From Clostridia bacterium (lineage in GTDB: Bacteria > Bacillota_A > Clostridia > Christensenellales > CAG-138): a DNA stretch of 10,415 bases. A model generated the notes under the pieces. The model was not told the DNA's origin. It saw nothing but the letters and a program-made list of their open reading frames with translations, and made no database searches. The stretch lies in NCBI GenBank assembly GCA_017459315.1, contig JAFUDD010000079.1, positions 1 to 10,415 of the forward strand. Direction: 5' to 3'. The translations under genes were made by a program, and so were the position numbers. The stretch's first letter is position 1. Each line of letters starts with the position of its first letter. This document shows positions 1 to 10,415 of the stretch, one piece after another.

Positions 1-265
1 CCATGACCGGCATACCGGCTTCGGGGCCGATATCGCCAAGGCCCAATACCGCGCTGCCGTCGGTGATGACGGCGCAGAGGTTGTGGCGGCGGGTCAGCTC
101 ATAGGACTTGTTGACGTCCTTTTGAATCTCCAGACACGGCTGCGCGACGCCGGGCGTATAAGCAAGGCTCAGATCCTCTTTCGTGGCGACCGGGACCTTC
201 GAAATGACCTCGATCTTGCCCTTCCACTCTCCGTGCAGACGGAGCGACTCTTTTGCGTAATCCAT
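1..265 (-). CDS. Malic enzyme, N-terminal part (cut by left window edge)
   Basis: Malic enzyme oxidatively decarboxylates malate to pyruvate and CO2 with NAD(P)+, in the cytosol. The first 88 codons are in the window with no stop before the left edge. The translation begins [20 protein letters not shown] and contains [11 protein letters not shown] (residues 34-44), the N-terminal signature of bacterial malic enzymes, with Tyr36 at the expected catalytic tyrosine. It is followed by [20 protein letters not shown] and AGMPVM, also typical. The catalytic lysine and the NAD(P)-binding domain would lie beyond the edge. The ATG at 265 is preceded by AAGGAGAG with a suitable spacer, and the gap to the larA-like gene upstream is 13 bases, so the two are probably co-transcribed. 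Family assignment is firm; cofactor preference and length cannot be judged from this fragment. Confidence 0.95.
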
Positions 266-278
266 GAAAGCTCTCCTT

Positions 279-1535
279 TTATTTTTCGGTAACGACCGTC
301 GGCAGCGTCGAGCCGCCGTACGGCATGGCAAGGATCGTCGCGTCCCTGCCCAATTTTTCCAAAGCGGCGTCCAGCGCCGCCTGCGCGGACGGCTGCGGCA
401 CCAAAAACAGCGAGCGCACAAAGTCCGGGTCGAGCTCGGACACGAGATCGACCTCGGCGCGCTCCAGCACCATGGCAATCGCCGCGGCCTTGTGCCCGCC
501 GAGCTTGAATTCCCGTTCGATGCGCTCGATCAGGCTGTGCGCCGTCGGCGCGGTCGTCATCCATTCCTCAAAGGTTTTCTCCCCAAGGCCCTCCTTGCAG
601 GAGCCGATCAGAATGATCACGCCGCCGTCGCGCACGGCATGCTTGGCATTGTCCAGCGCCTTCTGCGTCTGATACAGGTTCAGATCCTTCGGCGCGCCGC
701 CCTGCGATACCAGTACGATATCGGCGGGCTGCCTGAGCTCCTTGCGATACAGCGTATCCAGGAATTTGCAGCCCTCGCGGTGGGCCTTGGTCACATCGCC
801 CGCCACCGCGCGTAAAATTTCCTTATGCTCGCTCAGCACGACGTTCACGATAAAGTCGATGCCGAGCATGTCGCCCGCCTCCTCGATATCGAGGCGCAGC
901 GGGTTCGTTTCGAGCGCGCCGGCCTTGGCTTCGGGCAGGATCATGCGACTGTGGTTCGCCTGAATCGCGGCGCGTGTCGAGCAGCCGGGCATGACGGCCT
1001 TTGCACCGCCGGAATAGCCCGCAAAATAGTGATATTCGATGTTGCCGAGGCAGATCCTGCGGTCGGCTTCCGCCACGACGCGCGTGATATCCACGGGCGT
1101 CCCGCGCGAGGTCGTGCCAAACGACACGCAATCGTCCGGATCGCTGTCCACGCAGCGGATTTCGGCATAGGCGCGCTCGCCCGCCAAGCGGCGCTGCTCC
1201 TCCGGCGTTTGCTTCCGATGGCTGCCGAGCGCAAAGACAAGCGTGATATCCTCTTTCCGGATGCCCGCCGCATACAGCTCGTCGAGCAGCGCGGGCATGA
1301 CCTTATAGGTCGGCATCGGGCGCGTGATATCGCTCGTGACGATGGCAACCGTTTCCCCGGGATGCACGATCTCCTTGAGGCGCGGCGAACCGATGGGGTC
1401 GGCCAAGGCGCGACGCACCTCAGCCTCCCCCACAAGACCTACCGGAACCTCGTTTGCGTGCAATTCCCCCAGGAAATGCTCCTCCGGCACCTCAACCTCC
1501 TGGCAGCCCGTGCCGAATCCGAAACGCAGTTTCAT
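279..1535 (-). CDS. larA: LarA-family nickel-pincer 2-hydroxyacid racemase/epimerase
   Basis: This 418-residue protein matches the LarA family at full length. LarA enzymes interconvert 2-hydroxyacid stereoisomers by hydride transfer with a nickel-pincer nucleotide (NPN) cofactor. All key residues known from Lactobacillus plantarum LarA have counterparts: Asp69 and Arg72 in SDITRP, His106 in LGSHR, His169 in [13 protein letters not shown], Lys179 (covalent cofactor lysine), His195 (nickel ligand), and Gln289/Lys292 in LNLYQTQK. It should therefore be able to bind NPN and be active. LarA homologs differ in substrate (lactate, malate, 2-hydroxyglutarate, aryl-lactates, sugar acids), so lactate should not be assumed. 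A malic enzyme follows 13 bases downstream, which makes malate a reasonable guess (inference). LarB, LarC and LarE, which make NPN, are not in the window. The start is the ATG at 1535 behind AAAGGAAAG; the gap after the transketolase C subunit is 33 bases. Confidence 0.93.
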
Positions 1536-1568: not shown

Positions 1569-2534
1569 TTATTTCTTCCGCGCGACGACGGCCTTGATCT
1601 GCTCCTCGATGTGCTTGGCGGTCAGGCCGAAGCGTTCCTGCAGATAGCTCTGGGTGCCGACCTCGCCGAACTCGTCCTCAACCGCAACGCACGCGGCGGG
1701 AACCGGGCAGCGCTCGCCGAGCACTTCCAGCACGGTGTCATACAGACCGCCGTGACGGTTCGCGTTCTCCGCAACGACGACGGCGCCGGTCTTTTCGGCC
1801 CATGCAGCCACGGCGTCCGCGTCGATCGGCTTGATCGTGAAGCAATCGACGACCGCGACGGAGATGCCCTCTTTTTCGAGAGCGGCCGCCGCCTGCAGCG
1901 CCTCATGCAGCATAATGCCCGCCGCGAACACGACGGCGTCGGTGCCTTCGCGCAGCGTAACGGCCTTGCCGATCTCGAGCTCGCTGCCGTCCTCATAGAT
2001 GCGGGCGAGCAGCTTTCTGCCGACGCGGATATACTTGATGCCCGGACGGTTCACGCACTGCTTCAGCACGGAGATGAGGCAGGTCGGGTCGGACACGTCG
2101 ATGATCGTGGAGTGCGGCAGCACGTTGTACAGCGCGACATCCTCGAACGGCATGTGCGTGCCGCCGTTCATCGTGGCGGTGACGCCGGGGTCGGTGCCGA
2201 TGACCGTGATATCGTTCTTGCCGTAGCCGCCGGACAGGAAGATCTGGTCATACATGCGGCGCGACGCGAACGGGCCGAAGGAGTGGATGATCGGCTTGAA
2301 GCCCGCGACGGCAAGACCTGCCGCCACGCCCGCCATGTTCGCTTCGGCGATGCCGCAGTCGATGGCGCGCTCGGGGTTCTTCTTCGCCCACTTCAGCGTG
2401 CCGGAGCAGCTCATCAGGTCGGCGTCGAGATAGATCGTGTCGGGATCGTTGTCCACGATCTCGGCAATCGTTGCACCAAGGACCTCTTTGCAAAGACGGG
2501 GGTCCATTTCTCCGTTATAAACGATCTTCTTCAT
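1569..2534 (-). CDS. Transketolase, C-terminal subunit
   Basis: This is the pyrimidine-binding plus C-terminal half of a split thiamine-diphosphate transketolase, 321 residues from the chosen start. Glu64 in DCGIAEANMAGVAAGLA is the conserved glutamate that activates the ThDP aminopyrimidine. The transketolase C-terminal domain follows from about residue 185 (KAVTLREGTDAVVFAAG, then TGAVVVAEN). The partner half is encoded immediately upstream with one intervening base, and the two presumably form a heterodimer or heterotetramer in the cytosol. The loop usually reading DGPTHQP or DGASHQ is NGGTHMPFED (residues 123-132) and the common EEH/ENH motif is ENANRHGG, so donor or acceptor sugar specificity may differ from ordinary transketolase. 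The start is ATG 2534, because GGAGG lies 6 bases before it; an ATG at 2555 would add seven residues and overlap the partner gene without a better ribosome site. Confidence 0.93.
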   Translation of the reverse strand: MKKIVYNGEMDPRLCKEVLGATIAEIVDNDPDTIYLDADLMSCSGTLKWAKKNPERAIDCGIAEANMAGVAAGLAVAGFKPIIHSFGPFASRRMYDQIFLSGGYGKNDITVIGTDPGVTATMNGGTHMPFEDVALYNVLPHSTIIDVSDPTCLISVLKQCVNRPGIKYIRVGRKLLARIYEDGSELEIGKAVTLREGTDAVVFAAGIMLHEALQAAAALEKEGISVAVVDCFTIKPIDADAVAAWAEKTGAVVVAENANRHGGLYDTVLEVLGERCPVPAACVAVEDEFGEVGTQSYLQERFGLTAKHIEEQIKAVVARKK

Positions 2535-2535
2535 G

Positions 2536-3378
2536 TTACGCCTCCAATGCCGCAAGCTCCGCTTTGAGTTCGGCGGTCCACTTTGCGTACCGCTCGTCGT
2601 TCACGGGCATGCTGTGGTTCATTTCGGTGTTCTCAACGTCCGCGATGCCGTGACCCTTCACGGTGTCCAGCACGATCGCATACGGCTTGTCGCCGCCCTT
2701 GCGGGTGCGCTCAAGCGCCTCGGCAATCGCCTCCACGTCGCTGCCGTCCACCTTAACGGTGTCGAAGCCGAACGCCTGCATCTTCACCACGAAATCGCCC
2801 TGCGGCAGCACCTCGTCGGTGTAGCCGTCCAGCTGACGCTTGTTCCAGTCAATCAAAACGACCAGATTGCCGAGCTTCTTCGCGCTGGCGAACATGTAGG
2901 ACTCCCAGCACTGGCCTTCGTCCGATTCGCCGTCGCCGACGATCAAAAACGTGCGGCAGTTGCGGCCCTTCAGCTTGTCGCCGAGCGCCAGTCCCGCGGC
3001 CTGCGAGGTGCCCTGGCCCAAGGAACCGGTCGTCACGTCGACGCCGGGCGTCTTGTTGCGGTCGCAATGGCTCGGGAGCCGCGTGCCGCCGCGGTTCATC
3101 GTCAGCAGCTCTTCATAGGGGAAGAAGCCCTTGACGGCCAGCGTGCCGTATACGGCGGGGCCGGCATGACCCTTGGAGACGACGAGCTTGTCGCGCTCCG
3201 GCCACTTGGGGTTCTTGGGGTCATAGCGCATTTCACGCCCGTAGAGCACCGCGAGCACGTCGCCGATGCTCATCGCGCCGCCGATATGGCCGGAGCCGAT
3301 GCCGTGGATCGCATCGAGCGCCGCCATGCGGATACGGACCGCAAGCGCCTGCAATGCTTTCTTTTCCTGTAATTCCAT
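2536..3378 (-). CDS. Transketolase, N-terminal (ThDP diphosphate-binding) subunit
   Basis: Transketolase moves a two-carbon ketol unit between sugar phosphates, yielding glyceraldehyde 3-phosphate in the pentose phosphate pathway. This 280-residue subunit carries the diphosphate-binding half: the ThDP/Mg motif begins at GDGESDEG (148-155) and ends at Asn179 in LIDWN. Active-site histidines are visible as His31 in SGHIGG, His71 in VVSKGHAGPA and His104 in PSHCD. TTGSLGQG (116-123) is the usual substrate-channel motif. Length and split architecture match two-subunit transketolases of archaea and many anaerobic bacteria. The ATG at 3378 follows a purine-rich GGAGAGAGGG stretch, and the gene begins 20 bases after the PGK stop. 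Its last codons include the ribosome binding site of the C-subunit gene, so the two halves are probably translationally coupled. Split enzymes for unusual sugars (apulose-4-phosphate or sulfosugar transketolases) have the same layout and cannot be excluded. Confidence 0.93.
   Translation of the reverse strand: MELQEKKALQALAVRIRMAALDAIHGIGSGHIGGAMSIGDVLAVLYGREMRYDPKNPKWPERDKLVVSKGHAGPAVYGTLAVKGFFPYEELLTMNRGGTRLPSHCDRNKTPGVDVTTGSLGQGTSQAAGLALGDKLKGRNCRTFLIVGDGESDEGQCWESYMFASAKKLGNLVVLIDWNKRQLDGYTDEVLPQGDFVVKMQAFGFDTVKVDGSDVEAIAEALERTRKGGDKPYAIVLDTVKGHGIADVENTEMNHSMPVNDERYAKWTAELKAELAALEA
2541..2545 (-). promoter_or_regulatory. Ribosome binding site deciding the transketolase C-subunit start
   Basis: GGAGG lies 6 bases before ATG 2534 and within the last sense codons of the N-subunit gene (stop at 2536-2538). 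It supports the MKKIVYNG start and coupled synthesis of the two subunits. Confidence 0.8.
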
Positions 3379-3398: not shown

Positions 3399-4652
3399 TT
3401 ATTTCAGCGGCAATGTAGAGCCGTGCCGCAAGGCTTTCACAACGGGCAGCTCCTCCCCGCTCAGGAAGCGGATCAACGCGCCGCCGCCCGTGCAGATGTA
3501 ACCGATCTTATCGGTGAGCTTGTATTTTTCGGTCGCGGTGATGCTGTCGCCGCCGCCGAGCACCGTGAAGCCCTCGGTATCGGCCAGCGCCTGCCAAAGC
3601 GCCTTGGTGCCGTATTCGCTCGGCGCCTGCTCGAACACGCCCATCGGGCCGTTGACGAACACGGTCTTGGCCGCAAGGATGCGCGCGCGGTAGTCCGCCG
3701 CCGTCTCATGGCCGATGTCGATTGCGCCGATCTCGGCGGGAATTTCGCCGATCTTCGCTTCATGCCGCTCGCCGTCCGTCACCCACGCAAGGTCCGTCGG
3801 CAGAACGATCTTGTCGCCGTAGGTCTTATACAGCTCGCGCGCGACCTCGTAGTATTCGGTATAGTTCGATTTTTCGATAAACGCCGCGCTGCCCGCGCCG
3901 ATGTCGTTGCCGAGCGCGATCAGGAAGATGTTCGCCACAAGGCCGCCGGTTAAGATCTCGTCGGCCACGCCGCGCTCCAAAACGGTCTTCATCATCTGGA
4001 ACGCGTCGGAAATCTTCGCGCCGCCCAGCGAGAACACGCAGGGACGTTCGGGCTGCTCCATGACGGAGGACACGGTGCAGTATTCTTTTTCAAACAGGCG
4101 ACCCATCGCGGAGGGCAGGACCTGCTCGAACCCGCAAAGGCTCGGCTGATCGCGGTGCGCCGCCGCAAACGCGTCGCATACGTACAGGTCGGCAAGCGGC
4201 GCCAGCTTTTCGACCAGCTGCGTCTTGGCCTGCTGCTCGTGCGTTAAGCGGAGCTTCATTTCAAAGAGCGTCTGCTCCTCGCTCATGAAGCGTACGTTAT
4301 CCAAAAGCAAAATTTCGCCGTCTTGTAAACTGCGAATCGCTTCCCTCGCCGCCGGGCCGCAGACGTCGTCGATCCAACGGACTTCCCTATGGAGAAGTTC
4401 GGACAAGACCTTGGCATGGGGCTTGGTCGTATAAAAGTTTTTGTACTCAATATCGCTGCCCTGATGCGCCATGAGAACAACCTTGGCGCCCTTGTCGGAC
4501 AGCTCACGAATTGTCGGCACGCAGGCCGTGATGCGGTTGACGCTTTTCAGCGTCCCCGCATCACGATCCACGGGTTGATTGATGTCTACACGGCACAGAA
4601 CCGTTTTCCCGCGCACCGAAAGTTCGTCCAGCGTTCTGATTCCGAATCGCAT
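3399..4652 (-). CDS. pgk: Phosphoglycerate kinase, archaeal-like
   Basis: PGK transfers the acyl phosphate of 1,3-bisphosphoglycerate to ADP, the first ATP-yielding step of lower glycolysis. The 417-residue protein has the two-domain PGK layout: RVDINQP (21-27), LLLDNVRF (115-122, Arg121), CDAFAAAHRDQPS (159-171, Arg167), SLGGAKISDA (208-217, Lys213), FVNGPMGVFE (332-341) and the nucleotide-site loop VLGGGDS (364-370). The wording MAHQGSD, DAFAAAHRDQPSL and GGAKISDAF (rather than SHLGRP and GGAKVSDK) resembles archaeal PGKs. One oddity is that the HxxR motif near the substrate phosphate reads His63-Gln-Gly-Ser66, losing the arginine. The start at 4652 follows GAGAGG. It sits 25 bases after the archaeal-type GAPDH gene, consistent with sequential enzymes in one operon. 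Function as PGK is well supported; the archaeal affinity is from motif comparison by eye. Confidence 0.94.
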   Translation of the reverse strand: MRFGIRTLDELSVRGKTVLCRVDINQPVDRDAGTLKSVNRITACVPTIRELSDKGAKVVLMAHQGSDIEYKNFYTTKPHAKVLSELLHREVRWIDDVCGPAAREAIRSLQDGEILLLDNVRFMSEEQTLFEMKLRLTHEQQAKTQLVEKLAPLADLYVCDAFAAAHRDQPSLCGFEQVLPSAMGRLFEKEYCTVSSVMEQPERPCVFSLGGAKISDAFQMMKTVLERGVADEILTGGLVANIFLIALGNDIGAGSAAFIEKSNYTEYYEVARELYKTYGDKIVLPTDLAWVTDGERHEAKIGEIPAEIGAIDIGHETAADYRARILAAKTVFVNGPMGVFEQAPSEYGTKALWQALADTEGFTVLGGGDSITATEKYKLTDKIGYICTGGGALIRFLSGEELPVVKALRHGSTLPLK

Positions 4653-4677
4653 GTGACAACCTCTCTTTTAACGCGTC

Positions 4678-5733
4678 TTATTTTTTGAATCTGCCGATGT
4701 GCAGATACTCGTTCGTCTTGGCGGTGCCTTCCTCGCGGGTGAGCTGCATCTTCATCGAAGCGCGGATCGCGTCGATGGTCTCGGGGATCGTGACGCTCTC
4801 CTGCGGGATGTTGATGGCATACATGATGTCGTTGCCGCTCTCGACGATGCTGTCCTCCCAAAGGCCGATCTCATACATATCGCCGCGGCGGTTGCCGAGA
4901 TCACGCGCATACTTGAACAGGCTCGCATTGCCCTTGAAGCCCTCGTCGATGGTGACGGTGCGGATACGCGGATGCGCGCGGAACGCTTCGAGCGCCATCT
5001 CGCGGGTGATCTTCTTGCCGTCCTTTGCGGTGGCGAGCACGGTGATGATGTGGCCGTGCGTGACCGGCGTGTGGACGAGGATGCCCGTCGCTTGGATGTG
5101 CGGCATGATCGTCATGAGGTCAAGCGCCTGATGCGACGGCGCCTTGTCGATCTGCAGCGCGTTGGTGAGGCCGCGATGATAGTCGCCGGGATCCGCAACG
5201 CGGCGGATGATCGTGATGGCGACCTTTTCGAGCGGGATCACGCGGTCGAGGCAGTCTACCGTGCGGATGAGGCCGGTGGTGTTGCAGCTTGTCAGCTTCA
5301 GGTATTCCTGACCGACGCCCTTTTCATAGTTGGCATAGCCGTGGAAGAACACGTCCGCGACGGAGTTCTTTTCGCCGCCCTGGAAGATGGCCTTGACGCC
5401 GATCTTCTTATACAGCTCCTTGTTCTTTGCGCCGACGCCGCCGGGGGAGGAGTCGAGCATGATATCGACCTTGCGGCAAAGCTCCTCGAAGCTGCCCGCG
5501 ACGGGGATATCATACTTGTCGAACGCTTCCCGATCCGCGCCGTCCACAAGGTACAGATCGTACTTCACGCCGTTCACGCCGATCATATCGTTCTCGCGCA
5601 GCGCGCGGATCGACAGGGTGGGCGCAAGGTCCGCGATGCCGACAAGCTCCATGTCGCCCTGCATCGCCACGCCGTCAGCGAGACGCTGACCGATGGTGCC
5701 GTAACCGGCTACACCGACTTTAATCTTTGCCAT
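4678..5733 (-). CDS. Type II (archaeal-type) glyceraldehyde-3-phosphate dehydrogenase
   Basis: This 351-residue protein belongs to the archaeal class of phosphorylating GAPDH, which makes 1,3-bisphosphoglycerate from glyceraldehyde 3-phosphate, phosphate and NAD(P)+. Visible signatures are the Rossmann motif GVAGYGTIGQRLAD (7-20), SSPGGVGAKNK (95-105), AIFQGGEK (115-122), the catalytic Cys150 in TSCNTTGLIRT, RRVADPGD (177-184) and a histidine-bearing THGH (225-228) where archaeal enzymes have the catalytic histidine. Near the C-terminus are WEDSI and QESVTIPETIDAIRA. These differ from ordinary bacterial GapA, which has SNASCTTN. The residue after the second beta strand is Asp35, where NADP-preferring methanogen enzymes carry a lysine nearby, hinting at NAD+ preference (inference). 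It lies between the IolG-like gene (33 bases upstream) and pgk (25 bases downstream). The ribosome site is the modest AAAGGAAG ahead of ATG 5733. Confidence 0.93.
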   Translation of the reverse strand: MAKIKVGVAGYGTIGQRLADGVAMQGDMELVGIADLAPTLSIRALRENDMIGVNGVKYDLYLVDGADREAFDKYDIPVAGSFEELCRKVDIMLDSSPGGVGAKNKELYKKIGVKAIFQGGEKNSVADVFFHGYANYEKGVGQEYLKLTSCNTTGLIRTVDCLDRVIPLEKVAITIIRRVADPGDYHRGLTNALQIDKAPSHQALDLMTIMPHIQATGILVHTPVTHGHIITVLATAKDGKKITREMALEAFRAHPRIRTVTIDEGFKGNASLFKYARDLGNRRGDMYEIGLWEDSIVESGNDIMYAINIPQESVTIPETIDAIRASMKMQLTREEGTAKTNEYLHIGRFKK

Positions 5734-5766: not shown

Positions 5767-6780
5767 TCAGATTTCGTCCACGCGAACGGGGCGATTTTCC
5801 TTCAGAGACTTGTTGCACGCCAAGGCGAGCTTGATGGAAACGAGGCCGTCCTCGATGCCGGTCTTGGGCTGCTCGCCCTTCAGAATGCACTCGATGAACT
5901 CGCGGACCTCCGCCTGATAGGAGCCCATGTAGCGTTCGAGGAAGAACCACAGCGGCTTCTCGCCGGTCACGCCGTCCACGTTGGACAGGACGACGTTGGA
6001 CGCGGTGTCGTTCTGCGTGGTCGCGCAGCCCTTGGAGCCGAACACCTCGCCGCGCTGATCATAGCCGTATACGGCCTTGCGGGAGCCGTCCACGGTCGCC
6101 AGAGCGCCGTTGGCAAGCTTCATCGTGATCGTGCAGGTATCCACGTCGCCGGCTTCGCCGATGGCGGGGTCGATCAGGCAAGCGCCCTGCGCATAGACCT
6201 CGACGACCTCCTGACCGGACAGGTAGCGTACCATGTCGAGGTCGTGGATCATCATGTCCATGAAGATGCCGCCGGAAACCGCCGCGTATTCAGCGGGTGG
6301 GGGCTCCGGATCGCGCGAGGAAACGCGAACGTACTGCACCTCGCCGATCTTGCCGTCCTCGACGACCTTGCGCAGCGCACGGTAGTTGTGGTCATAGCGA
6401 CGGTTGAAGCCGACCTGATAGATCAGCTTTTTCGGGGACGCGAGCAGCGCCTTTTTGACCTCTTCGATCTTCTCAACGCTCTGGTCGATGGGCTTCTCGC
6501 AGAAAATGTGCTTGCCGGCGGCAATCGCTTCGAGGGAGATCTTTGCATGCAGGTTCGTGGATGCGCAGATCAGAACCGCGTCGATACGCTCGTCGTTCAG
6601 AATCTTGGTGTAGTCCTCATAGACGCCCTCGATGCCGACCGACTTTGCCCATTCCGCCACGGCGGGCTTCATGTAGGGATCGGCAATCGCAAGGATGTGC
6701 GCTTCGGGAACACCGGTGAGGATGCTCTTGGCGTGAACCTGTCCGATGCGGCCCGCGCCGATAATGCCAACGTTAATCAT
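5767..6780 (-). CDS. Gfo/Idh/MocA oxidoreductase, inositol 2-dehydrogenase-like
   Basis: This 337-residue NAD(P)-dependent sugar or polyol dehydrogenase resembles IolG, which oxidises myo-inositol to 2-keto-myo-inositol. The N-terminal Rossmann fold has GIIGAGRIGQVHA (6-17) and Asp34 at the end of the second strand, which favours NAD+. The catalytic lysine is Lys96 in CEKPID, and the DxxxH pair is Asp175/His179 in GGIFMDMMIHDLDM. Both match residues essential in Bacillus subtilis IolG. The start is ATG 6780 behind GGAGG with a 7-base spacer, 50 bases after the mutase stop. No other inositol-catabolism gene is in the window, so the true substrate may be another polyol, sugar or sugar acid; the fold and chemistry are clear, the substrate is not. 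Its position inside a glycolytic cluster is unusual. Confidence 0.9.
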   Translation of the reverse strand: MINVGIIGAGRIGQVHAKSILTGVPEAHILAIADPYMKPAVAEWAKSVGIEGVYEDYTKILNDERIDAVLICASTNLHAKISLEAIAAGKHIFCEKPIDQSVEKIEEVKKALLASPKKLIYQVGFNRRYDHNYRALRKVVEDGKIGEVQYVRVSSRDPEPPPAEYAAVSGGIFMDMMIHDLDMVRYLSGQEVVEVYAQGACLIDPAIGEAGDVDTCTITMKLANGALATVDGSRKAVYGYDQRGEVFGSKGCATTQNDTASNVVLSNVDGVTGEKPLWFFLERYMGSYQAEVREFIECILKGEQPKTGIEDGLVSIKLALACNKSLKENRPVRVDEI

Positions 6781-6830: not shown

Positions 6831-8399
6831 TTATGCTTCGGTATACGCCGCGCCCGCGCCGTCCACCAAGGACGCGTAGGTGCGTTGGATCTTCGCCCAG
6901 TTCTGGTCGCGGTCAAGCGCGACGCCGCGGCCGACGCCGGACACGATCAGGCCGACGCCCTTCTTCTGGATCGTCTCGCCGAATTCCCGCAGCAGCGCGG
7001 GCGCGCTGCCGGGCTGCGTCGAGCGGCCGTCGAAGATGATGTGTACGTATACGTTTTTGAGCCCCGCTTCCTTTGCCATATCGACCAGCGCCAGCGGATA
7101 GTCGATGGAGCCGTGCGAGGACTTCTTGGTCAGCAGCGCAAACAGATGCAGCGCCGTGCCGCGCTCCTTGACGGTCTTGAGCGTCTCCAGGAACACGGGG
7201 TTCTTGGCAAACGAGCCGTCCTTCATCGCGTTGTCCAGGCGCACATCGTCCTGCAGAACGACGCGGCCGGAGCCGAGGTTGATATGGCCCGCTTCCGAGT
7301 TGCCGGTTTTGCCCTCCGCAAGACCGACCGCGGGGCCGCTCGCTTCGAGCTCCGCCCACGGATAGTCGCGCAGCAGGCCGTCCCAGTCCGGCGTGCTCGC
7401 CGTGAAGATCGGGTTGTTTTCGGTGGGCGCGTCGAGGCCCCAGCCGTCGCAGATCAGAAGCAGCACCTTGCCCGTGTTCGCAAAGCGGAACAGCGGCTCA
7501 CCGGTCATTTCCGCGGGCTGCTCGAGGCCCATGGCGGACAGCACCGTCGGGGCTACGTCGCAGAGCTTGCCGTGGTTTTTGAGCTTTTCGGTGCCCTCGC
7601 CGAGCGCGATGCAGGCGACAAGATTCGTCGTGTGCGAAACGTGCGGCTTTCCCTCCGGCGTATGCAGCACTTCGATGTTGCCGTGGTCTGCGGTCACAAG
7701 TACAGTATACCCCTTTTCGCGCGCGTGCGCAACCGTTTTTCCGACGTATTTGCTGATCGCTTCGCAGGCAACCGGCTTGGCGGCGTCGGACGAAGTGTGG
7801 CCGATCACGTCGCCGTTGGCGAAGTTCGTCACGATGAAATCATAGCCCTTGTCGATGCCTTCCTCCAGCTTTGCGGCAACCTCCGGCAGCTTCAGCTCCG
7901 GCACCGTCTCAAACGGCACGCCCTTGGGCGACGGGATGCGGAAATCGTCCTCGCCGTCGAACGGCTTCTGGTTGCCGCCGTTGAAGAAGAACGTGACGTG
8001 CGCATACTTTTCGCTTTCGGCAAGGTGCATCTGCGTCTTGCCGTTGGCGCTCAGCACCTCGGCGAGCGTCTTTTGCACCTTGGACGGCGCAAACGCGATC
8101 GGCAGGTACGTATATTTTTCGCTGTACATCGTGAGAATCACAAAGTCCAACGGCTTGAGCATTTCCCGTTCGAAGCCCTTGAAGTTCGGGTCGGTGAACG
8201 CGTCGGTCAGCTCGGTTTCGCGCTCGCCTCTGCGGCAGCAGAAGATCACGCCGTCGCCCGGCTTCACGGTTCCTTCCGCCTTGCCGTCCTTGTCCACTAA
8301 GTTCATCGGCTCGAAATGATACTCCGAACCGCCGTTCTCGTACAGCTTTTCGACCGCGCGGGCGAGTGCGTCGCCGCCGGACAGTTTGTATTCCGCCAT
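6831..8399 (-). CDS. Circularly permuted cofactor-independent phosphoglycerate mutase (iPGM)
   Basis: iPGM interconverts 3- and 2-phosphoglycerate through a phosphoserine intermediate with two Mn/Mg ions. The 522-residue protein has all iPGM parts in swapped order. Residues 1-305 match about 205-511 of a normal enzyme: Arg57/Arg60 in RRGER, Lys131 in ESEKYAHVTFFFNGG, Asp197/His201 in NFANGDVIGHT, Asp238/His239 in TADHGN, His256 in SHTTN, then APTVLSAMGLEQPAEMTG. Residues 307-522 match about 1-216: Asp318 in ICDGWGL, nucleophile Ser368 in GNSEAGHINLGSGR, His429, Arg459 in DGRS, Arg491 and Arg497 in LDRD. Offsets from Bacillus stearothermophilus numbering (recalled) are constant in each block: +204 to +206, then -306. 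The Asp normally after Arg459 is Ser460. The start is ATG 8399, since AGGAGG lies 7 bases upstream; an ATG at 8432 adds 11 unlikely residues. The gene precedes IolG, GAPDH and PGK genes, supporting a glycolytic role. Confidence 0.9.
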   Translation of the reverse strand: MAEYKLSGGDALARAVEKLYENGGSEYHFEPMNLVDKDGKAEGTVKPGDGVIFCCRRGERETELTDAFTDPNFKGFEREMLKPLDFVILTMYSEKYTYLPIAFAPSKVQKTLAEVLSANGKTQMHLAESEKYAHVTFFFNGGNQKPFDGEDDFRIPSPKGVPFETVPELKLPEVAAKLEEGIDKGYDFIVTNFANGDVIGHTSSDAAKPVACEAISKYVGKTVAHAREKGYTVLVTADHGNIEVLHTPEGKPHVSHTTNLVACIALGEGTEKLKNHGKLCDVAPTVLSAMGLEQPAEMTGEPLFRFANTGKVLLLICDGWGLDAPTENNPIFTASTPDWDGLLRDYPWAELEASGPAVGLAEGKTGNSEAGHINLGSGRVVLQDDVRLDNAMKDGSFAKNPVFLETLKTVKERGTALHLFALLTKKSSHGSIDYPLALVDMAKEAGLKNVYVHIIFDGRSTQPGSAPALLREFGETIQKKGVGLIVSGVGRGVALDRDQNWAKIQRTYASLVDGAGAAYTEA

Positions 8400-8441: not shown

Positions 8442-9218
8442 TCAGTTGATGCGGGGCGTCGGGTCCTCGACCGTTTCGGGGCAGAACCTGCCCTCGCCGG
8501 GAAAGACCTTCAAAAGCTCGTCGAAGTGATGGATGATGCCGTCCGGCTTGTTTTCCTCGGTCAGCTTGAATTCCAGTCCGCCGGGGTACTCCGCGCCGAT
8601 GGTGCCCGCAAAGTTCGACTGCTTGGCGCCGATGATGTCGCGCTTCAGATTGTCGCCCACAAACGCGCTGTGCTCGGGTCTTACGCCCGCTTCCTGCAGG
8701 GCGAGGAAGTAGATCGCGGGGTGCGGCTTGCGGAGCATCGTGACGCTCGACTGCTGCACCGTGCAGAACAGGTCGCGGATGCCGTCATGGTCGAGCCACT
8801 CGTCGATTTCGAGCGTGCCGATAAGGTCGCTGATGATGCCGACCTTATAGCCGCGCCGTCTCAGTTCCTTGACCGTCTCGATGCCCTTCGGCACGACGAC
8901 GCGTTCACCCTTGGCGCGGCGGAAGCAGTAGGTCAGCTCCTTCGCATGCTTTTCGATGTGCGCCTTGTCAAGCTCCGGCACCAGCCAGCGCGTCCAGAGC
9001 ATTTCCTCCGGCGCTTCGCACATGTATTTCAGCGCCCAGTTGCGGTAGGTATCATACCGCTTGTTGAGCAGATTATAGTAGTCGTCCGGGTCCATGTCGG
9101 TGCCGCAGATGTCGGCGATCCGCGTGCGCGCCTCGACGATGAACGGGCGGTTGTCCTCGTCCACGATGCGGAACGTGCCGCCGAGATCGAGGAAGATGGC
9201 TTCGATGTTTTCCTTCAT
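8442..9218 (-). CDS. HAD-superfamily hydrolase, third of a tandem trio
   Basis: This 258-residue haloacid-dehalogenase-fold protein is probably a small-molecule phosphatase. Motif I is LDLGGTF with nucleophile Asp11; the second aspartate of the usual DxD is Gly13. Motif II is GIISD (Ser130), motif III is LRKPHP (Lys164), and motif IV is VGDNLKRD (Asp189, Asp194). Residues about 20-110 form a helical C1-type cap with EAPEEMLWTRWLVPELD, a segment nearly repeated in the upstream paralog. The core motifs place it with subfamily I HADs. The start at 9218 follows GGAGGG, which lies inside the last codons of the upstream hydrolase gene, two bases separating the two frames, so translation is probably coupled. 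A 42-base gap separates it from the mutase gene. No substrate can be named; a phosphorylated sugar or acid from the same pathway is an inference from context. Confidence 0.9.
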   Translation of the reverse strand: MKENIEAIFLDLGGTFRIVDEDNRPFIVEARTRIADICGTDMDPDDYYNLLNKRYDTYRNWALKYMCEAPEEMLWTRWLVPELDKAHIEKHAKELTYCFRRAKGERVVVPKGIETVKELRRRGYKVGIISDLIGTLEIDEWLDHDGIRDLFCTVQQSSVTMLRKPHPAIYFLALQEAGVRPEHSAFVGDNLKRDIIGAKQSNFAGTIGAEYPGGLEFKLTEENKPDGIIHHFDELLKVFPGEGRFCPETVEDPTPRIN

Positions 9219-9220
9219 CG

Positions 9221-9988
9221 TTATACCCTCCGAACCTTATCCCACGCGACGTGCGGCGCCTTCGGGAAGATCTCTTTCAGTTCGTTGAAATCGAAGATGA
9301 CCGCGTCCGGGCGGTTCTCGTCGGTGATCTTCTCCTTGGCGAGCTTTTCGGGCGTGGTGTAAAGAATGAACATGCCGTAGCCCGCCAGACGCGTGCCCTC
9401 GACGTCGCGGTTCAGGTTATCCCCGATGTAGACGCAGCGTTCGGGCTTGACGCCGAGCAGGTCGCAGGCCTTGTTGGAGATCGCGGGGTCGGGCTTGCGG
9501 ATGCCCTCGACGCAGGACAGCAGCACCGCGCCGAAATACTTTTCGAGATCGTCGTGCTTCAGCCAGCGCGGGATCTCCTGCGAGGTGACGAGGTTCGAGA
9601 TGATGCCGAGCTTATAGCCGTTGGCATACAGATCCTTGATCGACTGCGCACCGTTCGGAGCGACGACGCGGCGGCCGTCCTTGTTGCGATACTCGATGGT
9701 CAGCTCGATCGCGTTCTTCTTGATCAGCTCGCGGTCGTATTCCGGGGTGAGCCACTTGGTCCAAAGCTCCTCCTCCGGCGCTTCCTTCATCGTCTCGAAG
9801 CACCATTTGCGGTAGCCCGCATAGCGGTAGTCGAGGAACTTGCAGAACTCGTCCGGGTCGCCCTTCTCGCCGCACATTTCGGCGATCTTGCGGCGGGCTT
9901 CGGCTTCAAATTCCGCGTCGCGCTCGACAAGGCGCAGCGTTCCGCCGAGGTCGTAAAAGATTGCATCAAATTCGCGTTCGTTTGCCAT
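9221..9988 (-). CDS. HAD-superfamily hydrolase, second of a tandem trio
   Basis: This 255-residue protein is a clear paralog of the next gene downstream. Motif I is YDLGGTL with nucleophile Asp13 and Gly15 in place of the second aspartate; motif II is GIISN (Ser131); motif III is IRKPDP (Lys165); motif IV is IGDNLNRD (Asp190, Asp195). The cap (about 20-110) contains EAPEEELWTKWLTPEYD, shared with its neighbour, and the C-terminal end has FDFNELKEIFP, matched by HFDELLKVFP in the downstream copy and ISELLDIFP in the upstream copy. The start at 9988 is set by AAGGAGG 7 bases upstream, which overlaps the final codons of the preceding gene; two bases separate stop and start. A phosphatase-like role is likely from the fold, but the D-x-G motif I and lack of any known close relative leave the reaction open. 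Confidence 0.9.
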   Translation of the reverse strand: MANEREFDAIFYDLGGTLRLVERDAEFEAEARRKIAEMCGEKGDPDEFCKFLDYRYAGYRKWCFETMKEAPEEELWTKWLTPEYDRELIKKNAIELTIEYRNKDGRRVVAPNGAQSIKDLYANGYKLGIISNLVTSQEIPRWLKHDDLEKYFGAVLLSCVEGIRKPDPAISNKACDLLGVKPERCVYIGDNLNRDVEGTRLAGYGMFILYTTPEKLAKEKITDENRPDAVIFDFNELKEIFPKAPHVAWDKVRRV

Positions 9989-9990
9989 GA

Positions 9991-10415
9991 TTAAGCCTCC
10001 TTGTTTTCATTGAGCGGCGGGAAGATATCCAAAAGCTCGGAAATACGCGTGATCGTGTAGTCCGGCTGCAAAATGATTTCCTGCGGTTCCTTTTTGATCG
10101 TGTCCGGCTCGTCGATGCGGACCATCGTACTAAAGCCCGCCTTGCGCGTGCCCTCGACGTCGCGGATCGGGTTGTCCCCGACGTAGGCGCATTGCTCCGG
10201 CTTCTTGCCGATGGCGCGGCAGGCGAGGAAATAGATTTCCGGGTCGGGCTTACGGAGCCGCACCTTGGAGGACAGGATCACGGCCTTGAAGTAGTGCGCG
10301 ACGCCGTCGGCGATCATCCAGTCCGGAATCTCGGTCTCGGTGATCGTATTCGCAATGATGCCGAGAGTGTAGCCGCGGCGATCCAGCTCGATGATCGTGG
10401 ATTTCACATCGTCGC
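9991..10415 (-). CDS. HAD-superfamily hydrolase, first of a tandem trio (cut by right window edge)
   Basis: Only the C-terminal 141 codons or so are present. The frame is open through the right edge, and the GTG at 10407 is an internal valine rather than a start (DDVKSTIIELDRRGY aligns with SIKDLYANGY and TVKELRRRGY of the two paralogs). Motif I and the cap are therefore outside the window. Motif III is RLRKPDPEIYF and motif IV is VGDNPIRD. Motif II reads GIIANT, with alanine where the other two copies have serine, a residue that normally helps position the phosphoryl group. The gene ends NENKEA, and these codons carry the ribosome site of the next gene. The subfamily assignment is secure, but whether this copy is fully active cannot be judged from the fragment. 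Confidence 0.88.
   Translation of the reverse strand, partial: DDVKSTIIELDRRGYTLGIIANTITETEIPDWMIADGVAHYFKAVILSSKVRLRKPDPEIYFLACRAIGKKPEQCAYVGDNPIRDVEGTRKAGFSTMVRIDEPDTIKKEPQEIILQPDYTITRISELLDIFPPLNENKEA
9996..10002 (-). promoter_or_regulatory. Ribosome binding site embedded in the end of the first HAD gene
   Basis: AAGGAGG on the minus strand sits 7 bases before ATG 9988 and lies within the last codons of the upstream hydrolase. The same arrangement recurs at 9226-9231 (GGAGGG) before the third hydrolase. This indicates coupled translation of the three paralogs. Confidence 0.8.

What the first reader, a model, noticed from the sequence alone, without database searches (positions are those of the whole stretch)
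6831..8399. Naturally circularly permuted cofactor-independent phosphoglycerate mutase
Seen directly: one uninterrupted frame encodes the C-terminal portion of iPGM (equivalent to about residues 205-511) followed by its N-terminal portion (about 1-216). The metal ligands, nucleophile serine and nearly all substrate-binding residues are found at constant offsets from the normal numbering (+204 to +206 for residues 1-305, -306 for the rest), so the order is swapped but nothing essential is missing. The old C- and N-termini are fused around residues 305-311 with almost no linker (near 7468-7487). The new termini fall inside the transferase domain instead of the phosphatase domain. I am not aware of a described natural permuted iPGM. 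Moving the termini could alter the hinge motion between the two domains that the enzyme uses during catalysis.
Basis: partly seen in the sequence, partly recalled or inferred. Interest (0 to 1): 0.9.

Follow-up and report, generated by a model that had tools for sequence, protein, structure and literature searches.

The report
Inside-out relative of a glycolysis enzyme
A bacterial gene, close kin of which come from ruminant guts, encodes a glycolysis-enzyme relative whose two halves have swapped order; the swap is shared by a whole family in several bacterial groups, where it sits beside phosphate-handling and often inositol-use genes and probably does a new job.

Summary
Confirmed. Minus-strand gene 6831-8399 (522 aa) is a natural circular permutant of cofactor-independent phosphoglycerate mutase (iPGM): residues 15-303 match 219-508, and 312-520 match 6-214, of the B. 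stearothermophilus enzyme. It is no assembly error: all 244 relatives fetched as proteins (two capped lists plus loci) share the order, and loci come from Clostridia, Lachnospiraceae, Spirochaetales, Peptococcaceae and Anaerolineaceae; a quick tree splits them from 22 canonical iPGMs with one branch (SH-aLRT 100). The phosphatase domain now sits inside the transferase domain, the reverse of normal. It is probably not the cell's phosphoglycerate mutase: substrate-contact Asp154 is Asp in 22/22 canonical but Ser in 239/244 permuted proteins; 36 of 41 genomes with the permutant also carry a normal-order iPGM or apgM; a HAD-hydrolase gene lies just upstream in 50 of 51 loci, often with an ABC importer and myo-inositol genes. 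Best reading: a neofunctionalised phosphomutase/phosphatase acting, with HADs, on an imported phosphorylated polyol, perhaps inositol phosphates. Substrate and activity are untested. No permuted iPGM turned up in the papers searched. New variant of a known kind.

The parts
6831..8399 (-). Permuted iPGM-family gene (cpPGM), 522 aa
   Evidence: AGGAGG at 8412-8407
7491..8399 (-). Residues 1-303: old C-terminal part (15-303 = canonical 219-508): second half of transferase domain plus most of phosphatase domain
7467..7490 (-). Residues 304-311: fusion of old C- and N-termini, no added linker
   Evidence: alignment; model pLDDT block means 97 and 98 here
6840..7466 (-). Residues 312-520: old N-terminal part (canonical 6-214)
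7296..7298 (-). Ser368 = nucleophile Ser62
   Evidence: S in 244/244 permuted, 22/22 canonical
7020..7022 (-). Ser460 at the place of substrate-contact Asp154
   Evidence: S in 239/244 permuted; D in 22/22 canonical
8442..9218 (-). HAD-family hydrolase HADa, directly upstream
   Evidence: conserved position
9221..9988 (-). HAD-family hydrolase HADb
9991..10413 (-). HAD-family hydrolase HADc, cut by the window end
5767..6780 (-). IolG, inositol 2-dehydrogenase (TIGR04380, 450.9 bits, cut-off 355)
4678..5733 (-). Type II (archaeal-type) glyceraldehyde-3-phosphate dehydrogenase
3399..4652 (-). Phosphoglycerate kinase paralogue
   Evidence: 35-39% to PGKs near canonical iPGM genes
2536..3378 (-). 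Transketolase N-terminal subunit
1569..2534 (-). Transketolase C-terminal subunit
   Evidence: scanned as 1572-2540; start inferred
279..1535 (-). LarA-type nickel-dependent malate racemase (LarAH6)
2..265 (-). Malic enzyme N-terminus, cut by the window end

Best explanation
The gene belongs to a family of naturally circularly permuted iPGMs, most simply of single origin. An old event, most simply tandem duplication and trimming, moved the termini from the phosphatase domain into the transferase domain (order shown by sequence; the route is inferred). The enzyme keeps the two-metal site and the serine nucleophile of iPGM, but its substrate pocket is remodelled (Asp154->Ser, GGVHSH->KSSHGS, NFRPDRA->CRRGERE). 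It works not as the housekeeping glycolytic mutase but as a phosphomutase or phosphatase in a catabolic module: an ABC importer brings in a phosphorylated polyol, HAD hydrolases and this enzyme move or remove its phosphates, and in many hosts the freed myo-inositol enters the IolG/IolE/IolB/IolD route. The catalytic chemistry, the substrate class and the order of steps are inferred, not shown.
For: Permutation; family-wide order; model mean pLDDT 94.4, pTM 0.84. One split of 47 permuted and 22 canonical iPGMs, SH-aLRT 100 (quick tree). Seven metal ligands/nucleophile kept in 244/244; Asp154 replaced in 242/244. Permuted gene in 16 of 19 genomes of the nearest genus, 14 of them with a canonical iPGM too; 12 of 12 genomes from other families of the order show only the canonical one. 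Over (16 of the 21 hosts checked in the last two), 36 of 41 different host genomes have a canonical iPGM or apgM. HAD gene directly upstream in 50 of 51 loci; in 37 loci with >=5.5 kb on both sides: HAD 37, Iol-type 29, ABC permease 20. Of six canonical iPGM loci five have a PGK nearby and none a HAD, ABC-permease or Iol match. iolD in 13 of 21 permutant-bearing and 19 of 126 other genomes of the L037 family, Fisher p 1.6e-5.
Against: No activity or substrate is known. Eight of nine substrate-contact residues are kept, so phosphoglycerate may still bind. In the window's own lineage the gene shares an operon with GAPDH and PGK, which fits a pathway-dedicated phosphoglycerate mutase. 8 of 21 permutant-bearing genomes in the L037 family lack an iolD match, so free inositol is not always the product. 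The Fisher test ignores relatedness. The HADs carry D-x-G-x-T, not DxDxT (179 of 184), so phosphatase activity of the partners is itself unproven. The importer's parts fall below the cut-offs of every NCBIfam transporter model shown; its solute-binding proteins match solved iron-binding proteins only over a short stretch or no Pfam family. Five of the 41 hosts showed no other iPGM and were not searched for apgM or dPGM.
Confidence: 0.6

Rival explanations
1. It is a real phosphoglycerate mutase, permuted but unchanged in function, dedicated to the triose phosphate that inositol breakdown releases (GAPDH-II, PGK, cpPGM in one operon).
For: GAPDH and PGK in the window operon; 8 of 9 substrate residues and all seven metal-site residues kept; TIGR01307 score 469.7 over its cut-off 330.65.
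Against: Asp154 changed class-wide; GAPDH and PGK were found near the gene in 19 and 18 of 37 loci, HADs in 37 of 37; a canonical iPGM or apgM is usually also there, apgM close to the permutant in 12 of 15 loci of the L037 family.
Confidence: 0.25
2. It is a phosphatase rather than a mutase: without Asp154 the phosphoserine is hydrolysed instead of handing phosphate back, so it acts like an alkaline-phosphatase-superfamily phosphatase on the imported ester.
For: Metalloenzyme (alkaline-phosphatase superfamily) core; among the nine substrate contacts only Asp154 is altered class-wide; HAD neighbours.
Against: The other transferase-domain contacts are kept in nearly all members, which hydrolysis alone would not need. 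That Asp154 decides between transfer and hydrolysis is a guess.
Confidence: 0.3
3. Assembly artefact or broken gene.
For: Nearest relatives are MAG contigs; one relative (L038) is split in two frames.
Against: Same order in 244 fetched proteins; conserved active site; proper start, Shine-Dalgarno and open frame.
Confidence: 0.01

Closest known systems
GpmI / cofactor-independent phosphoglycerate mutase (1ejj, 1o98; TIGR01307)
   Same: Both domains, two-metal site, nucleophile Ser62, 8 of 9 substrate-contact residues; 36-41% identity per half to four of five canonical iPGMs, 30-32% to the fifth
   Different: Order of halves swapped; nesting of domains inverted; Asp154->Ser; different gene neighbourhood; usually present beside another iPGM-type gene in the genome
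apgM (archaeal-type iPGM, TIGR00306 / NF003160)
   Same: Same metalloenzyme superfamily; lies beside or near the permutant in 12 of 15 loci of the L037 family
   Different: About 400 aa, different transferase part (PF10143), canonical order; the permutant scores 23 bits against a 320 cut-off
Human PGM3 (passages of PMC5570346 read)
   Same: Precedent for a natural circular permutation in a phosphomutase family
   Different: Alpha-D-phosphohexomutase superfamily, another fold; about 60 residues within one domain are moved, not half of the protein
Phytate / inositol utilisation by gut bacteria (PMC7618129, PMC12482443; passages read)
   Same: Ends in myo-inositol catabolism
   Different: 'phosphoglycerate' has 0 occurrences in either main text

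Membership tests
iPGM (GpmI) | Metalloenzyme core plus iPGM_N transferase domain | tested here: met
   PF01676 191.2 bits, PF06415 157.8 bits
iPGM (GpmI) | Metal ligands D12, D403, H407, D444, H445, H462 and nucleophile S62 | tested here: met
   kept in 244/244 permuted and 22/22 canonical
iPGM (GpmI) | Nine substrate contacts S62, H123, R153, D154, R185, R191, R261, R264, K336 (list from PMC3886921) | tested here: not met
   eight kept in the window protein; D154 is S there and in 239/244
iPGM (GpmI) | Collinear order, transferase domain inserted in phosphatase domain | tested here: not met
iPGM (GpmI) | TIGR01307 curated cut-off | tested here: met
   469.7 vs 330.65 bits, summed over two swapped stretches; the stricter NF003897 is not met (405.9 vs 862)
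iPGM (GpmI) | 3-PG/2-PG mutase activity without 2,3-BPG | not testable with these tools
   needs assay
apgM | TIGR00306 cut-off | tested here: not met
   23 vs 320 bits
phosphopentomutase | NF009049 cut-off | tested here: not met
Inositol-phosphate catabolic enzyme | Activity on an inositol phosphate | not testable with these tools
   genome context only

The most novel reading that the evidence does not exclude
The permutant is an inositol-phosphate phosphomutase in an intracellular phytate (or inositol-phosphate) route: an ABC importer brings in inositol phosphates, up to five HADs with an unusual D-x-G-x-T motif remove equatorial phosphates, and the permutant shifts the stubborn axial 2-phosphate to a neighbouring hydroxyl so that a HAD can take it. 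The lost aspartates, in both this enzyme and the HADs, would be made good by neighbouring phosphates of the substrate itself.
Probability: 0.2. Interest if true: 0.88.

Novelty: new variant of a known kind. Interest (0 to 1): 0.72.

Why it matters
A textbook glycolytic enzyme fold has been turned inside out in nature: the inserted domain and the host domain have swapped roles, yet the metal site is kept. That gives a natural test of how much connectivity matters in a two-domain enzyme that works by closing around its substrate. The family spans several phyla, is called phosphoglycerate mutase in many of the records that name it (others say alkaline phosphatase family or sulfatase-like), and probably is not one; correcting it would expose an unrecognised phosphate-ester catabolic module in gut and other anaerobic bacteria, often linked to inositol.

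Tried and rejected

Counting caveats: loci include near relatives and a few pairs from one genome; 56 loci were considered, 5 left out of the upstream count for under 600 bases upstream, and L042 (canonical) left out throughout. 'Iol' and 'LacI' counts include weak Gfo/Idh/MocA and LacI-family matches (some at 22-35% identity), so 29/37 and 30/37 are upper figures; ABC counts are lower figures, since in one genome the importer lies about 18 kb from the permutant. One canonical locus (L102) has a weak ABC-ATPase match (24%), and one (L100) has no PGK match. The 244 proteins include some fragments and a few duplicates between loci and database hits (P0122 and P0125 are one protein).

Full report
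What is there. The finding's span 6831-8399 holds one gene on the minus strand, ATG at 8399, 522 residues, with AGGAGG seven bases before the start. Pfam places the Metalloenzyme domain first (best stretch 103-293) and iPGM_N second (389-518), the reverse of a normal iPGM. Against 1ejj the query residues 15-303 match 219-508 and 312-520 match 6-214. The same crossed pair of segments appears against five canonical iPGMs, including the one from the nearest held genome (39.5% and 38.9% identity). The join spans residues 304-311, eight residues, equal to canonical 509-511 plus 1-5. In the 177 proteins in which both flanking motifs were found, the MTG-to-DGxG spacing is 17-20 in 176; 67 proteins were not measured, and some of the family (P0106 and kin) run about ten residues longer between the two halves' motifs.

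It is real and old. 243 of 244 proteins showed the swapped order by simple motif search and the last, P0197, by a relaxed one. These are the 120 listed hits of each of two searches, the window protein and three from loci; the true number is larger. The 42 loci bear titles from Clostridia, Lachnospiraceae, Sphaerochaetaceae/Spirochaetales, Peptococcaceae, Clostridiaceae and Anaerolineaceae; one of them, L042 (Helicobacter), is a canonical iPGM by its gene start. In the family of L037 (an Anaerolineaceae MAG) 21 of 147 genomes have the permutant; in an even sample of the nearest genome's class only that genome has it (1 of 291). A quick maximum-likelihood tree of 47 permuted and 22 canonical proteins, the permuted ones reordered for alignment, puts all permuted on one side of one branch, SH-aLRT 100. 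That fits one permutation event.

Active site. PMC3886921 (passages read) lists nine residues that touch 2-PG/3-PG: S62, H123, R153, D154, R185, R191, R261, R264, K336. In 22 canonical proteins all nine are kept. In 244 permuted ones S62 and H123 are kept in 244, R153 in 241 (S 2, Q 1), R185 and R191 in 243, R261 and R264 in 241 and K336 in 242 (the rest of these five are gaps), while D154 is S 239, D 2, N 2, I 1; the two D are one protein seen twice. Fourteen positions, D154 included, are nearly fixed in each class and differ between them; eleven lie within two residues of a catalytic or contact residue (which lists a fifteenth, the start Met). So the pocket is remodelled in a class-wide way. 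A role of D154 as acid or base is recalled and was not confirmed in a paper here (one search found none).

Neighbourhood. In the window the gene follows three HAD hydrolases and precedes IolG, type II GAPDH, PGK, a split transketolase, a malate racemase and malic enzyme. In longer relatives the operon goes on to IolE, IolB and IolD (L003's IolB-like protein did not reach the NCBIfam threshold used and rests on BLAST). Of 51 loci with at least 600 bases upstream, 50 have a HAD gene directly upstream on the same strand; the exception is L035, which has two permuted genes. In 37 loci with 5.5 kb on both sides: HAD 37, LacI 30, Iol-type 29, ABC permease 20, PfkB 20, GAPDH-II 19, PGK 18, PHP 16, apgM 11. 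The importer resembles phosphonate-, iron- and polyamine-type systems but stays below the NCBIfam cut-offs shown; in one 97% complete genome it lies about 9 kb beyond iolD with a fifth HAD. By contrast, of six canonical iPGM loci five have a PGK nearby, and none has a HAD, ABC-permease or Iol match.

Redundancy. Among 19 genomes of the nearest genus, 16 have the permutant and 14 of those also a canonical iPGM; 12 genomes of other families in the order show only the canonical. Of ten more distant hosts, six also have a canonical iPGM. Of 16 hosts in the L037 family (16 of the 21), 4 have a canonical iPGM and 12 an apgM. G329 is in both sets, so 41 different genomes, of which 36 have another iPGM-type enzyme. 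The other five (G003, G006, G321, G323, G328) were not searched for apgM or dPGM; G003 and G006 are incomplete (71% and 79%). In the L037 family apgM is also found in 31 of 126 genomes without the permutant, so it is no mark of this module.

Link to inositol. iolD occurs in 13 of 21 permutant-bearing genomes and 19 of 126 others in the L037 family (Fisher p 1.6e-5, relatedness ignored), in 13 of 17 other permutant hosts over the family cut-off, and in 1 of 12 order-mates without the permutant. The link is strong but not strict, so the shared substrate may be a wider class of phosphorylated polyols.

How it probably works. Shown: fold order, kept metal/serine site, class-wide loss of Asp154, gene company. 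Inferred: an ABC system imports a phosphorylated polyol; the permutant uses its serine to take phosphate from it and either hand it back at another position or release it; HADs remove phosphates; where iol genes are present, inositol is then oxidised by IolG. Rivals are a pathway-dedicated phosphoglycerate mutase and a plain phosphatase.

Known or new. No permuted iPGM was found in three literature searches aimed at it; of their hits, passages were read in PMC5570346 (about PGM3) and PMC11046441 (the permutation there is in GH70), and the other four were seen only as listings. Natural permutation of a phosphomutase has a precedent in PGM3. I rate this a new variant of a known kind.

Noticed in passing
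window 8442-10413 and loci: The HAD matches in these loci (E<=1e-20) carry motif I as D-x-G-x-T: 179 of 184 have Gly where DxDxT phosphatases have the second Asp. Their chemistry may be unusual.
   Followed up: partly
L035:2372-4027: Second permuted gene in one locus, of a sister type with DGSD (Asp154 kept, Arg153 changed to Ser), 46-47% identical to the window protein.
   Followed up: partly
window 3399-5733: An archaeal-type (type II) GAPDH and a divergent PGK sit in a bacterial inositol operon; related genomes have another PGK near their canonical iPGM.
   Followed up: partly
window 1569-3378; L007, L012, L027: Split transketolase is found in some operons and was not detected in otherwise similar ones.
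   Followed up: no
window 2-1535: Nickel-type malate racemase (LarAH6) next to malic enzyme inside an inositol operon suggests a D-malate step.
   Followed up: no
L037:11557-12762: In 12 of 15 loci of this family an apgM gene follows the permutant, then an RpiR regulator and the importer; each of these genomes searched has one apgM match only.
   Followed up: partly
L037:19630-21336: HAD domain fused to a xylose-isomerase-like barrel.
   Followed up: no
L038 (G330:C217): The permuted gene is split into two frames, residues 7-411 and 405-516; sequencing error or decay.
   Followed up: no
L037:5688-6767: A transaldolase-type protein (PF00923) sits among the iol genes, and no IolC or IolJ match was seen among the neighbours scanned; an altered end of the inositol pathway is possible.
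   Followed up: no
G001 contigs C34 and C59: The nearest genome carries two permuted genes, 100% and 87% identical to the window protein; duplication or mixed bin.
   Followed up: no
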